Part shown: in pieces, positions 15,806 through 19,674 of the stretch
Layout: every line of letters starts with the position of its first letter
How positions within the stretch are numbered: the stretch's first letter is position 1
NCBI GenBank assembly: GCA_025363655.1
Contig: JANYDK010000036.1
Location: 1-64,000, forward strand
Source of the DNA: Deltaproteobacteria bacterium
GTDB lineage: Bacteria > Myxococcota_A > Polyangia > Polyangiales > JADJMO01
DNA length: 64,000 nucleotides
Direction of reading: 5' to 3'
Translations under genes and position numbers: made by a program
Notes under the pieces: model-generated
What the model was told of the DNA's origin: nothing
What the model saw: only the letters and a program-made list of their open reading frames with translations
The model's database searches: none

Positions 15806-16351
15806 GTGAACTCGACCGCCCGGGCGCAGCTCAACGAGCACATGCGCCGGCTCGCCGACGGGGATCGCTCCGCCTTCGAGCCGGTCTACGCATCGCTGTG
15901 GGCGCCCGTGCGGGCGTTTTGTTCGCGTGCGCTCACCGGCCTCGATGGCGAGGACGCAGCCCAACAAGCGCTGCTCAAGATGTTCTCTCGCGCCTCGTCG
16001 TTCGATCCAAGCGGCGACGCCTTGACCTGGGCGCTCTCCTTCGCGGCCTGGGAATGTCGAACGGTACGTCGACGTCGGGTGCGAGCACGCATCGGCGACG
16101 TCGATGCGAATGGCGCTGTGGACGCACGCGTCGATGGGAATCCGACCCCGGAGGCCGCGGTCATCGAGGCCGAGCTCGAGGCCGCGGCCCTCGAAGTGCT
16201 CGGCGCGCTCTCGGAAGCCGATCGAGCGACTCTGATGACGACCATGTGCGACGAGGTGCCTTCCGACGTCGGCGCGGCGACCTTCCGAAAGCGGCGTGAG
16301 CGAGCGATGACACGACTGCGCGAAGCCTGGAGAAAAGTTTATGGAAGCTGA
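15806..16351 (+). CDS. ECF-type RNA polymerase sigma factor
   Basis: The 181-residue protein shows sigma region 2 (about 15-85: FEPVYASLWAPVRAFCSRAL, DAAQQALLKMF, then WALSFAAWECRTVRRRR) and region 4 (about 125-178: LSEADRATLMTTMCDEVPSD, TFRKRRERAMTRLREAW). Region 4 is slightly divergent around the turn. The GTG start at 15806 has AAAGG just upstream. The gene overlaps the next by 11 nt, the arrangement usual for an ECF sigma and its membrane anti-sigma. It probably drives this operon, but no repeated promoter motif could be fixed by eye. Confidence 0.8.
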   Translation: MNSTARAQLNEHMRRLADGDRSAFEPVYASLWAPVRAFCSRALTGLDGEDAAQQALLKMFSRASSFDPSGDALTWALSFAAWECRTVRRRRVRARIGDVDANGAVDARVDGNPTPEAAVIEAELEAAALEVLGALSEADRATLMTTMCDEVPSDVGAATFRKRRERAMTRLREAWRKVYGS

Positions 16352-16892
16352 CGTCGACGTGGCAAAAGAAGGAGCCCGGCGCGCCTACGAACGAGGCCGC
16401 GTGCGTGATGCGCTCGTCGGAATCCTGCCGATCGCCGTGATCATCGTGCTCGCGGGCTTCGTCGATCGCACCTGGACGCCGGTGATTTTCGCCGGACCAC
16501 CGCTCTTGGTGGTGACAGCGGTCTTGCTTTGGCGTGGTCGACACTTCGGACGCGCAGTGCTCCCGGGCGTCGCCGCCGGCGTAGTTCCGTTCGTCGCGAT
16601 GCAGATCGCGCGTGCGACCGGTCATGCGTGCGCGGGTTCTGCGTGCTACTCGGTGTGCGTGCCGGCGTGCGTGATCGGTGGCTCGTTGGCCGGTGTGTTA
16701 CTTGCGCAAATGGCGAAGCGCTCCACCGCACCTCTCACCTCGTGGGGTGCCGGTGGGGTCGTCGCTGCGCTCACGGGGGCGCTCGGTTGTGCATGTGTCG
16801 GCACCTTCGGCGTGCTCGGCCTCCTCGTCGGCTTGTTGGTTGGCTCGGCGCCGCTGGTGCTCTTGCAGTCGCGCGGACGCGTACAGCGATGA
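16341..16892 (+). CDS. Polytopic membrane protein, possible anti-sigma partner
   Basis: The 183-residue product has a charged N-terminal cytoplasmic segment (about 1-25) followed by five or six hydrophobic helices, for example LPIAVIIVLAGFVD, VIFAGPPLLVVTAVLLW and LGCACVGTFGVLGLLVGLLV. Cysteines cluster near membrane edges: CAGSACYSVCVPAC (about 97-112) and GCAC (about 150). It starts within the sigma gene and its stop overlaps the next start (ATGA). Position suggests an anti-sigma factor that senses thiol state or metal, but there is no zinc-binding ZAS motif and no sequence family is recognised, so this role is inference. Confidence 0.7.
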   Translation: MEADVDVAKEGARRAYERGRVRDALVGILPIAVIIVLAGFVDRTWTPVIFAGPPLLVVTAVLLWRGRHFGRAVLPGVAAGVVPFVAMQIARATGHACAGSACYSVCVPACVIGGSLAGVLLAQMAKRSTAPLTSWGAGGVVAALTGALGCACVGTFGVLGLLVGLLVGSAPLVLLQSRGRVQR

Positions 16893-17968
16893 AGACGTTC
16901 GTGGTCCTCACGCTCGGAGCTTCGGTGATCGCCGTCAGCCCGGTGGTCTCGGGTGGCGCCTGCGCGGCGTGAAGCAACCCCAACCTGCCGGTCGGCGGGT
17001 CGACGATGGGTGATGCGGCGCAGAGCACGTCGAGAGTCCATGCCAGCTACGAGGTCGCCGCTTCGGTCGGGCCGTTGCCACCGGGGCTGCTCTTGCTCGC
17101 GCTCTCGACCGACTTCACGCGCATGAAGTCGTCGCACGAAGACGACTGTCCCGATCTCGGGCCGACGTGCGGCACCGCGAAGCCACCGACGCCGTACAAC
17201 CACAACCTCGTCAACTACGCCTACGGCCTCACCCTCGACGCGCAGCTTGGCGTGCTCTCGTGGCTCACCCTCGCGACCAGCATCCCGTATCGCGCGATCA
17301 CGACCGACGTCCACTACACCGACCTCGCTGGTCGTGACTACGCGCCGGTGCCGCCCGACGTGCACCATCGCAACCGCACCATCACGGGTCTCGGCGATCC
17401 GACGTTGCTCGTCGTGATCGGACGCGCCCTCGGTCGGCTGGGTTTTTCGGTACGGCTGGGCGCCTCGTTGCCGTTCGGGCGGACGCTCGACGCTGATCCA
17501 TTTCGTCTCGGCGACGAGGGCTTGGCGCACGAGCACGTGCAGTTCGGCACGGGTACGTTGCGTCCGATCGCCGGAAGCGCAATCGGCTACGATTTCGGGC
17601 CCATCGGCGTCGATGCTTGGTTCGGCGCGACGCTGTCGCTCGCCGCAAATTCGATTGGCTATCGACCCGGTCAGCGCTTTTCCGGTGGCCTGCGCGTAAC
17701 GAGCGCGCTCGGTACGTCGGTCGCGCGATTCGGGCTCGGCCTCGAGGCCGCACGCGAATCGACCGAGACATGGAGCGGACTGCAACCGGGAGAAGGCAAT
17801 CTCGGACGCACCGACGTGCTAGCAGTGGCGAGCGCCCGCTGGTCAGCGGCCAAGCGCTGGGGGCTCTTCGGCACGGTGAAAATTCCAGCGTACGTAAACG
17901 CGATTGGAGCCCAGTTGACGTATCCGTTGATCGTGCAGCTGGGAATCGCCACTGGGTTCGATTTGTGA
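16889..17968 (+). CDS. Outer-membrane barrel selenoprotein with CxxU motif (candidate)
   Basis: An ATG at 16889 overlaps the previous stop and opens a signal peptide (residues 1-24, ending SGGA). This is followed by Cys25-Ala-Ala-TGA at codon 28, then SNPNLPVGG and 330 more residues in the same frame to 17968. The downstream part is a beta-barrel of the MetA/phenol-degradation type: alternating strands, for example LGVLSWLTLATSIPYR and GFSVRLGASLPFG, ending in FDL. A barrel needs the signal peptide that lies before the TGA, so read-through is the natural explanation. Sec at position 28 would complete a CxxU redox pair. A hairpin with a GGUC loop follows the TGA. The alternative, translation from an internal ATG at 17006, would give an unexported protein. 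Confidence 0.8.
16970..17000 (+). promoter_or_regulatory. SECIS-like hairpin after TGA codon 28
   Basis: After the TGA (16970-16972), bases 16983-16989 (ACCUGCC) pair with 16994-17000 (GGCGGGU), with one G-U pair, giving a 7-bp stem closed by the tetraloop GGUC at 16990-16993. The loop starts 20 nt after the U of UGA; in E. coli fdhF the GGUC starts at 21 nt. This is the expected place for SelB binding. Confidence 0.75.
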
Positions 17969-18020
17969 TGCTGTCGCGAGGAGCGATGGAGCCACCGACA
18001 TGGTAACGTCCGATATCAGG

Positions 18021-18683
18021 ATGAAACACAGCTTCATTTTCGGCACAGTGCTCTTGGGTCTTGGCTGCAGCAGCAGCACCGGCGCGGGTACGGGGTCATC
18101 CGCCGATAGCACCGTGAACGAGACCGGCTCCGTCGAGACCGGCGCGGAGGCAGCGACGGATGGTGAAGCCGACGCCGCTCTCGACGCACCGGTGCCTTGC
18201 GGCGTGACCGTCGGCGACAAGCTCTGCGACCTCCCTCTCCGCGGCTTTCTCCGCAACGAGACGTCGGGACTGGCAACGAGTGTCGATCTCACCGAGTTCA
18301 AGCTGTCCGACGCACTCGCGATGGGCACGCAGAAGTACGCCTTCGTCTTCGATGCCGCTTTCTGGTGAAGCCTTTGCAAAGCGGCCACCGGTCAGGTGGT
18401 CAAGACGCTTCCCAGCCACGCCGACAAGGCGATGTTCGTGGACTTGCTCACCGAGGGAACCACGCCCACGAGCCTGGCGACGGACGTGCAGGTCCGAGCA
18501 TGGGTGAACAGCCTGAAGGTGCCCTTCACCACGGCGCGCGATCCTGACGGCAGCGACTTCGCGATTCGCACGATCTATGGGGTCAAAGAGACCACGTACA
18601 TCGTCGATCGCGCGACGATGATCATCGTCGCGAAGGCCAAAACGCCGGAAGACGCCCTTACGGCGCTCGACGCGCTTCCTTGA
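18021..18683 (+). CDS. Thioredoxin-like lipoprotein selenoprotein with UxxC motif (candidate)
   Basis: The frame runs from ATG 18021 to 18683 (220 residues) with one TGA at codon 116. A signal with lipobox LGLGC (Cys16) and an Ala/Glu/Asp-rich linker precede a TlpA/AhpC-type fold. The segment is FDAAFW-U-SLCKAATG, so Sec116 takes the place of the first Cys of a WCxxC active site. The resolving Cys119, the VPFTTARD cis-Pro region and YGVKETTYIVDR follow the TGA and belong to the same domain. An upstream ATG at 18000 is possible. The SECIS-like hairpin overlaps the TGA. A nonsense mutation would hit this exact codon only by chance. It follows the barrel gene by 52 nt. Confidence 0.85.
18366..18411 (+). 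promoter_or_regulatory. SECIS-like hairpin after TGA codon 116
   Basis: The upper stem is GGCCACC (18383-18389) with GGUGGUC (18395-18401), seven pairs with one G-U, capped by GGUCA (18390-18394), 24 nt after the U of UGA. A lower stem GAAGC (18367-18371, including the GA of the UGA) pairs perfectly with GCUUC (18407-18411). Both the GGUC loop and the UGA-anchored lower stem match the known bacterial SECIS plan. Confidence 0.8.
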
Positions 18684-18699
18684 AGTGAGGAGACGACCC

Positions 18700-19674
18700 A
18701 TGCGTACCTCGATCGCCGGATTTCTCTGGCTCGTGCTGACGACGAGCTGCAGCAGTGGAAACGGCGGCTCGAGCGCGCCGGTCGATGGGGCCATACGCGA
18801 CTCTTCCGTATCGAGCGATACGGCGCTCGACGGAAACGACGACGCTGCGGAGCCTGACTGCTCCGAGCCGGTCGAGGATCGACCGCCTGGGGCCGTCTGC
18901 GTACACGACGTCAGAGGTCTCGTCGTTCAAGAGGCCGACGGAAAGACGCCGGTCGCAGGCAAGGTTGTCTCGGTATGTGGAAACGTCTGCTACTACGGCG
19001 GTACCAACGGCGCTGGCAACTTCTCCACGCACGTTGGCCACTACATCTCGATCGTCCAGTACCAAGTGCTGATTCATGGGCGCCCTGATCGCGCGAGTCT
19101 CTACGTGAAGCTCCCGGCGCCGAACAGTGACGGCGACATCGTGTTCGCGACGCCAATCGTGGTGCCGAGCTACGACTCGATGGGCCCGCCGCTCCCAGAG
19201 GATGATGCGCCAGGAGGCAAACTGACGGCCGGTGACGTCACCCTCACGGTTCCCGATGGCATCGAATACGACCTCGACCCCGAGGACGTCGCGCTCGGCT
19301 CCGACGGCCGCCTGTTGCGCTCGGTGCGATGGACCAGTGCGACGCTGCCCAGCTTCGTCGCGGGAAGCGACGTCGCCGCGCTCTACGCGCTCGCGCCCTT
19401 CAGCGTCCGCTTCTGCAAGTCGCGCCCGTGCCCCGACGCGGCCGAAAATCCGACGAGGATCCCTGTCTCCCTCAAGAACACCACCAGCCTCCCTGCTGGC
19501 ACGGCGGTCGAGTTCTTCATCCTAGGCACCGACCTCTACAGCGTTCCGAGGAACGCCGGTGTGCTCGTCGTCCAGGCCACGGGAAAGGTCTCTGCCGACG
19601 GCAAGACGATCGACACCGACGCCGGTCAAGGCATCAACGAGCTTTCGCTCATCGGCGTCCGAGCGAAGAAGTAG
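18700..19674 (+). CDS. Lipoprotein with carboxypeptidase-regulatory-like domain
   Basis: The ATG at 18700 has a GAGGAG ribosome site and starts 17 nt after the thioredoxin-like gene. The 324-residue product has a lipobox TSCS (Cys17), an acidic Asp/Ser linker, then a beta-sandwich segment (about 68-130: VRGLVVQEADGKTPVAGKVV, SVCGNVCYYGGTNGAGNFS) that resembles CarboxypepD_reg domains. A C-terminal all-beta region follows (about 170-324). Cys pairs occur at SVCGNVC and FCKSRPC. It contains no in-frame TGA. It probably sits on the outer or inner membrane with the two selenoprotein candidates. Enzymatic function is not evident. Confidence 0.78.
   Translation: MRTSIAGFLWLVLTTSCSSGNGGSSAPVDGAIRDSSVSSDTALDGNDDAAEPDCSEPVEDRPPGAVCVHDVRGLVVQEADGKTPVAGKVVSVCGNVCYYGGTNGAGNFSTHVGHYISIVQYQVLIHGRPDRASLYVKLPAPNSDGDIVFATPIVVPSYDSMGPPLPEDDAPGGKLTAGDVTLTVPDGIEYDLDPEDVALGSDGRLLRSVRWTSATLPSFVAGSDVAALYALAPFSVRFCKSRPCPDAAENPTRIPVSLKNTTSLPAGTAVEFFILGTDLYSVPRNAGVLVVQATGKVSADGKTIDTDAGQGINELSLIGVRAKK

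What the first reader, a model, noticed from the sequence alone, without database searches (positions are those of the whole stretch)
16889..18683. Two adjacent candidate selenoproteins forming a periplasmic/outer-membrane redox system
Two neighbouring frames each contain exactly one TGA at a redox motif: CAA-U after a signal peptide in a beta-barrel protein, and W-U-SLC in a thioredoxin-like lipoprotein. Both TGAs are followed at 20-24 nt by a stem capped with GGUC, the loop bound by SelB in known bacterial SECIS. Barrel and thioredoxin fold each need residues on both sides of the TGA to make sense. A CxxU barrel next to a UxxC thioredoxin suggests an electron or thiol relay across the envelope. 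I know of no described system with this pairing.
Basis: partly seen in the sequence, partly recalled or inferred. Interest (0 to 1): 0.96.

Follow-up and report, generated by a model that had tools for sequence, protein, structure and literature searches.

The report
Selenium-bearing outer-membrane channel with thioredoxin partner
Two neighbouring genes in a soil myxobacterium use selenium in place of sulphur at their redox-active amino acids; one belongs to a large, apparently undescribed family of outer-membrane channels that in most relatives begins with a pair of selenocysteines and is encoded next to, or fused to, a thioredoxin, which points to selenium chemistry at the mouth of an outer-membrane pore.

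Summary
Both in-frame TGAs (16970-16972, 18366-18368) sit at redox motifs and both best fit selenocysteine (Sec).

The barrel belongs to a family not named in Pfam, NCBIfam 20.0 or a 119-family selenoprotein catalogue. I read 62 members from Myxococcota genomes: 50 carry UxxU, 3 CxxU (window, its paralogue, one other) and 9 only Cys, all before xNPNLP. A second scan adds Acidobacteriota and cultured isolates. A SECIS hairpin (loop about 17 nt after the last UGA) is present in Sec members beyond what synonymous codons give, and mostly absent from Cys members. SelA or SelB occurs in 50 of 51 Sec-barrel genomes but 2 of 8 Cys-only ones. The window's genome has SelB, SelD and tRNA-Sec; SelA was not found.

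The barrel models as a COG4313-like channel. The dyad follows a signal-peptidase-like site, so it probably starts the mature protein, on the segment that plugs the lumen in COG4313. Of 62 barrels, 53 are paired with a thioredoxin: 44 upstream (often with a heavy-metal domain), 9 fused.

The exact CxxU/UxxC pairing is local. Function (Trx-reduced, metal- or redox-switched plug) is inferred.

The parts
16889..17968 (+). Barrel selenoprotein gene (359 aa): signal peptide, CAAU dyad, COG4313-like outer-membrane beta-barrel
   Evidence: Translation with TGA=U; 61-row family alignment; AlphaFold2 pLDDT 86, pTM 0.84; Foldseek best 4rl8, E 6e-11
16970..16972 (+). Sec-encoding TGA (U28); U or C in all 62 homologues read
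16983..17000 (+). SECIS-like hairpin, 7-bp stem with GGUC loop at 16990-16993
   Evidence: model constraints from PMC13188914
18021..18683 (+). Thioredoxin-fold Sec protein, probable lipoprotein (220 aa), WUSLC
   Evidence: Translation; 29-row alignment with U/C and C invariant; AlphaFold2 pLDDT 86; Foldseek to ResA/TlpA-type thiol-disulfide oxidoreductases
18366..18368 (+). Sec-encoding TGA (U116) of the thioredoxin-like protein
18383..18401 (+). SECIS-like hairpin, loop GGUCA at 18390-18394, 21 nt after the TGA
16341..16892 (+). 183-aa membrane protein; its stop overlaps the barrel start (ATGA), suggesting translational coupling
   Evidence: no Pfam hit
15806..16351 (+). ECF-like sigma factor heading the same-strand gene run
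   Evidence: Sigma70_r2, 21.5 bits, below the curated cut-off of 24
18700..19674 (+). 324-aa putative secreted/lipoprotein, last gene of the run
   Evidence: no Pfam hit

Best explanation
Shown by sequence comparison: the window carries a barrel gene and a thioredoxin-fold gene, each with one UGA that is best read as selenocysteine. The barrel is a derived CxxU member of a family whose usual form is UxxU. Strongly inferred: the barrel is a 12-strand-type outer-membrane channel of COG4313 fold, and signal peptidase I cleavage leaves the dyad at, or within two residues of, the mature N-terminus, in the periplasm or the lumen plug. Inferred (about 0.4): the dyad on the plug is kept reduced by a periplasmic thioredoxin (usually HMA-Trx; in this operon the Sec lipoprotein may take its place). 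The chalcogenol pair, with conserved histidines of the barrel, binds a soft metal ion or is oxidised by an extracellular oxidant; this opens, closes or loads the channel, and thioredoxin resets it. Probability that both genes are selenoproteins and the family is as described: about 0.95. Probability of the metal- or redox-switched plug mechanism: about 0.4.
For: Sec/Cys alternation: 50 UxxU, 3 CxxU, 9 Cys-only; 64/5/10 in a second, partly overlapping scan; at least 3 Sec/Cys changes on the tree, the window's CxxU pair nested among UxxU members. SECIS against synonymous null; loop position and first loop bases fit the published bacterial model. One hairpin lies about 17 nt after the second UGA and about 26 nt after the first, both within 16-37 nt. 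Machinery: tRNA-Sec, SelB, SelD with its own TGA; SelA or SelB in 50 of 51 Sec-barrel genomes against 2 of 8 Cys-only, p = 4e-6. Thioredoxin directly upstream in 44 and fused in 9 of 62; HMA and cupredoxin domains; CzcA/CusA-like genes within 6 kb in 4 neighbourhoods including the window. Fold; plugged N-terminus of COG4313 in PMC4493636. AxA-like site directly before the dyad in 47 of 60, within two residues in the rest. Near-invariant His83, 105, 159, 160, 214, 216.
Against: SelA not found in the window's genome. No HMA-Trx beside the window's barrel, nor a convincing one in its genome. The paralogue L049 has no thioredoxin neighbour. Nine of 62 barrels, the window's included, lack an adjacent HMA-Trx-type partner (one lies at a contig end). 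Dyad region modelled at low confidence (pLDDT about 40-60), so the plug position is by analogy. Metal-efflux neighbours are few outside the Trx partner. No experiment.
Confidence: 0.6

Rival explanations
1. The barrel is mainly an anchor: an outer-membrane oxidoreductase whose dyad passes thioredoxin electrons to disulphides, peroxides or methionine sulphoxides at the surface, with no transport role.
For: Thioredoxin operon partner or fusion; UxxU and UxxC motifs are typical of redox enzymes; C-terminal Trx fusions would be periplasmic, like the N-terminus.
Against: Channel fold with best match to COG4313; HMA domains and metal-efflux neighbours are not explained; a diselenide would be a hard-to-reduce electron carrier in the periplasm (general knowledge).
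Confidence: 0.33
2. Soft-metal (Cu, Hg, Ag) sequestration or export: the selenol pair is a metal-binding site fed by the HMA-Trx partner, and the barrel lets the metal out.
For: HMA domain in several upstream Trx proteins; MerT-HMA gene in one cluster (L101); CzcA/CusA in four neighbourhoods and CDF, CzcB, multicopper oxidase around the window; His-rich linkers and cupredoxin in fusions.
Against: 15 of 44 partner proteins lack a CxxC in the N-terminal domain; RND genes are in few neighbourhoods; metal identity untested.
Confidence: 0.22
3. The TGAs are ordinary stops or sequencing errors and the downstream frames are remnants.
For: SelA not found in this assembly.
Against: TGA conserved across many genera with Cys at the same site in Sec-lacking genomes; SECIS; Sec machinery.
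Confidence: 0.02

Closest known systems
COG4313 / Phenol_MetA_deg outer-membrane channels (Pput2725, PDB 4rl8)
   Same: Best Foldseek match (E 6e-11, TM 0.74 by target); in Pput2725 about 14 N-terminal residues fold into the lumen (PMC4493636)
   Different: 13% identity; no chalcogenol dyad, Sec or thioredoxin partner reported in the parts of that paper read; window protein gives no Pfam hit
TonB-dependent receptor, FCYXU type (NF049945)
   Same: A barrel selenoprotein with CxxU in the published catalogue
   Different: Different family: no NCBIfam hit for our barrels
GSU2204 / MtrB-PioB-type outer-membrane selenoprotein (NF041027)
   Same: Sec in an outer-membrane barrel
   Different: No NCBIfam hit; MtrB/PioB-type barrel, whereas ours has the dyad before xNPNLP and a thioredoxin partner
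Rcas_1661 family thioredoxin-like (seleno)lipoprotein (NF041057) and Prx-like UxxC proteins (PF00578)
   Same: Thioredoxin fold, UxxC, lipoprotein
   Different: P0002 has no NF041057 hit up to E = 1; PF00578 at 21.9 bits is below its cut-off of 26
SAO and Tso multi-selenoprotein operons (named in PMC13188914)
   Same: Neighbouring selenoprotein genes presumed to share a pathway
   Different: Different proteins; none is an NPNLP barrel

Membership tests
Bacterial selenoprotein (both genes) | In-frame UGA aligned with Cys in homologues | tested here: met
   Barrel 53 Sec / 9 Cys; Trx 23 Sec / 6 Cys
[quoted passage not shown]
   Barrel loop at 17 nt, GGUC, -11.8; Trx loop at 21 nt, GGUCA, -14.2 for the 42-nt fold. 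Family-wide support strong for barrel, weak for Trx (mean z -0.83)
Bacterial selenoprotein (both genes) | SelA, SelB, SelD and tRNA-Sec in the genome | tested here: inconclusive
   SelB, SelD, tRNA-Sec found; SelA not found
Bacterial selenoprotein (both genes) | Selenium in the protein | not testable with these tools
   Needs 75Se or mass spectrometry
COG4313 / PF13557 outer-membrane channel | 12-stranded barrel fold | tested here: met
COG4313 / PF13557 outer-membrane channel | Sequence match to PF13557 | tested here: not met
   Window protein 0 families; 7 of 61 members weakly, best 2.3e-5. Not filed as a member
COG4313 / PF13557 outer-membrane channel | N-terminus inside the lumen | not testable with these tools
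   N-terminus low confidence; coordinates not available
TonB-dependent receptor FCYXU (NF049945) or GSU2204 (NF041027) | Profile match | tested here: not met
   No hit up to E = 1 for five barrels without a fused Trx; the fused barrel L097 hits only in its Trx/linker part
Thioredoxin-like / TlpA-ResA type (P0002) | Thioredoxin fold with CxxC-type active site | tested here: met
AhpC-TSA PF00578 (P0002) | Score over the gathering cut-off | tested here: not met
   21.9 against 26 bits

The most novel reading that the evidence does not exclude
A widespread class of outer-membrane channels whose lumen plug begins with a genetically encoded diselenide or selenol pair, switched by a dedicated periplasmic thioredoxin and/or soft metals, with two UGAs nine nucleotides apart decoded from a single SECIS hairpin.
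Probability: 0.35. Interest if true: 0.92.

Novelty: new variant of a known kind. Interest (0 to 1): 0.8.

Why it matters
It adds a large selenoprotein family (dozens of Myxococcota genera, also Acidobacteriota) absent from the May 2026 catalogue and from NCBIfam 20.0, mostly with two Sec residues at the likely mature N-terminus of an outer-membrane channel. Standard annotation is expected to truncate it at the UGA. It makes concrete questions testable: why put selenium at a pore mouth, how a periplasmic thioredoxin serves an outer-membrane protein, and whether one SECIS can serve two close UGAs. Cultured carriers exist.

Tried and rejected
Barrel search in the 55 nearest genomes with a single query found only the paralogue; a two-row profile over the phylum was needed. 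Rfam found no RNA family in the window. PDB sequence search gave nothing for the barrel. A first neighbour clustering dropped upstream genes overlapping the barrel start and was redone. A simple count of neighbour Pfam families gave few families beyond Trx and HMA. The Trx-family SECIS energy test alone was weak (mean z -0.83), so the case there rests on the U/C alignment and machinery. Considered and rejected: stop codon or pseudogene, TGA as Trp (Cys, not Trp, at the site in homologues), membership of known barrel selenoprotein families. Paper searches for selenoproteins in myxobacteria found nothing relevant, but only open-licence papers are held.

Full report
Observation. Both frames are as described. 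The barrel frame 16889-17968 has a single internal TGA at codon 28 in SGGACAA-U-SNPNLPVGG; the next frame, 18021-18683, has a single internal TGA at codon 116 in FW-U-SLC. The barrel start overlaps the stop of a 183-aa membrane protein (ATGA), which overlaps an ECF-like sigma factor; a further putative lipoprotein follows 17 nt after the thioredoxin-like gene. Five closely spaced genes on one strand suggest an operon (inference; no promoter evidence).

Sec machinery. The window's genome (9.0 Mb, 150 contigs, 96% complete) has a tRNA-Sec above the Rfam cut-off with a UCA anticodon, a full-length SelB frame and a SelD which itself contains an in-frame TGA. SelA was not found even at relaxed threshold, although four genomes of the same family have it. 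An assembly gap is the likely cause, but that is inference.

Thioredoxin-like protein. In 56 related genomes 16 have relatives, mostly with exactly one TGA. Aligned, the position is U or C in all 29, with the second Cys invariant; Cys forms read WCSYC, WCSPC, WCVPC and WCGPC. AlphaFold2 gives a confident thioredoxin fold whose nearest solved structures are ResA- and TlpA/DsbE-type proteins. There is no NCBIfam hit, and PF00578 falls below its cut-off. In a panel of 20 genomes, SelD exceeds its cut-off in the 14 that include the window's genome and its close carriers, with SelA over its cut-off in 13 of them (all but the window's); the other six (G005, G006, G008, G015, G017, G027), none of which has a TGA-bearing member, have neither. 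It is a new subfamily of a known kind of selenoprotein.

Barrel family. A paralogue at 70% identity in the same genome keeps the TGA and its surroundings nearly base for base. A two-row profile over 377 genomes of the phylum found matches in 67. Reading 62 members in full showed a shared signature just before the barrel: [UC]xx[UC]xNPNLP. Counts are 50 UxxU, 3 CxxU, 7 CxxC and 2 with only the second Cys. A scan of named genomes, partly overlapping, gave 64 UxxU, 5 CxxU, 6 CxxC and 4 single-Cys, including Polyangium fumosum DSM 14668, Archangium violaceum, Pyxidicoccus caerfyrddinensis, Paraliomyxa miuraensis and several Acidobacteriota MAGs.

SECIS. Sec members have a hairpin directly after the motif with loop usually GGUC, AGGCU, AGGUU or CGGGU, starting 16-17 nt after the second UGA. 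Because the encoded LPVGG favours pairing, I compared with synonymous codon draws: 48 of 53 Sec members are fully paired over five base pairs against 17.9 expected, none of 400 simulated sets above 28; Cys members 1 of 9 against 0.4. Energies agree (mean z -1.9 against -0.6). The loop also lies within the published 16-37 nt of the first UGA, so one element may serve both. The members are related, so these counts are not independent.

Machinery against family. SelA or SelB is over its cut-off in 50 of 51 genomes with a Sec barrel and in 2 of 8 with only Cys barrels (Fisher p = 4e-6, not corrected for phylogeny; one genome whose motif could not be read is left out). tRNA-Sec calls were less clear-cut.

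Fold and position of the dyad. AlphaFold2 gives a confident barrel (pLDDT 86, pTM 0.84) whose best solved match is the COG4313 channel 4rl8. In that structure about 14 N-terminal residues fold into the lumen from the periplasmic side (PMC4493636). In 47 of 60 family members an AxA-like signal-peptidase site lies directly before the dyad and in the rest within two residues, so the mature protein probably begins with the dyad. Together these suggest, but do not show, that the dyad is on the channel plug. Six histidines in the barrel are near-invariant.

Partner. A thioredoxin gene ends at or near the barrel start in 44 of 62 loci and a thioredoxin domain is fused behind the barrel in 9; some fusions add a His-rich linker and a cupredoxin domain. 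Several partner proteins carry an HMA domain, and 28 of 44 have a CxxC in the region before the Trx motif. One cluster (L101) holds a MerT-HMA protein. CzcA/CusA-type genes lie within 6 kb in four neighbourhoods, the window's among them; around the window are also CzcB, a cation diffusion facilitator and a multicopper oxidase (the Czc and CDF names rest on sequence reading and recall, not on a profile scan). The window itself has no HMA-Trx beside the barrel and its genome has no convincing one; the Sec thioredoxin lipoprotein may be its substitute (inference).

Novelty. The barrel has no Pfam or NCBIfam name (Pfam hits of members are weak or to fused domains) and does not appear among the 119 families of the 2026 review, which does list two other barrel selenoproteins (NF049945, NF041027). 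Paper searches found no description; only open-licence papers are held and supplements were not read. I rate it a new variant of a known kind: selenoproteins and Sec in outer-membrane barrels are known; a UxxU dyad at the mature N-terminus of a thioredoxin-coupled channel appears not to be.

Verdict. Selenocysteine in both genes: about 0.95. Barrel-thioredoxin functional link across the family: about 0.9. Specific mechanism: about 0.4 for a metal- or redox-switched plug.

Noticed in passing
L048/L049 (G000:C124:10651-11712): Second CxxU barrel, 70% identical, directly downstream of an adenylate-cyclase-domain protein and without a thioredoxin neighbour.
   Followed up: partly
L001:1501-3012: The tRNA-Sec 3' end overlaps the end of a convergent tyrosine-recombinase-like integrase gene: an element appears to be inserted at tRNA-Sec.
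   Followed up: no
window:15653-15790: 45-aa secreted-looking peptide ending CHCGPSCPCGADCDC just before the sigma factor; metallothionein-like. Its TGA is in frame with the sigma gene but an SD-like AAAGGT precedes the GTG, so it is probably a true stop.
   Followed up: partly
window:8343-13736: CDF, CzcA-like RND and CzcB-like genes (minus strand), a heavy-metal efflux cluster about 3-8 kb from the barrel.
   Followed up: partly
L099, L103 (and L087, L097, L098, L104, L132): Barrels fused through a His/Asp-rich linker to a thioredoxin domain, two of them followed by a cupredoxin domain.
   Followed up: partly
G000:C90:12973-13932: SelD of the same genome itself contains one in-frame TGA.
   Followed up: no
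   Followed up: no
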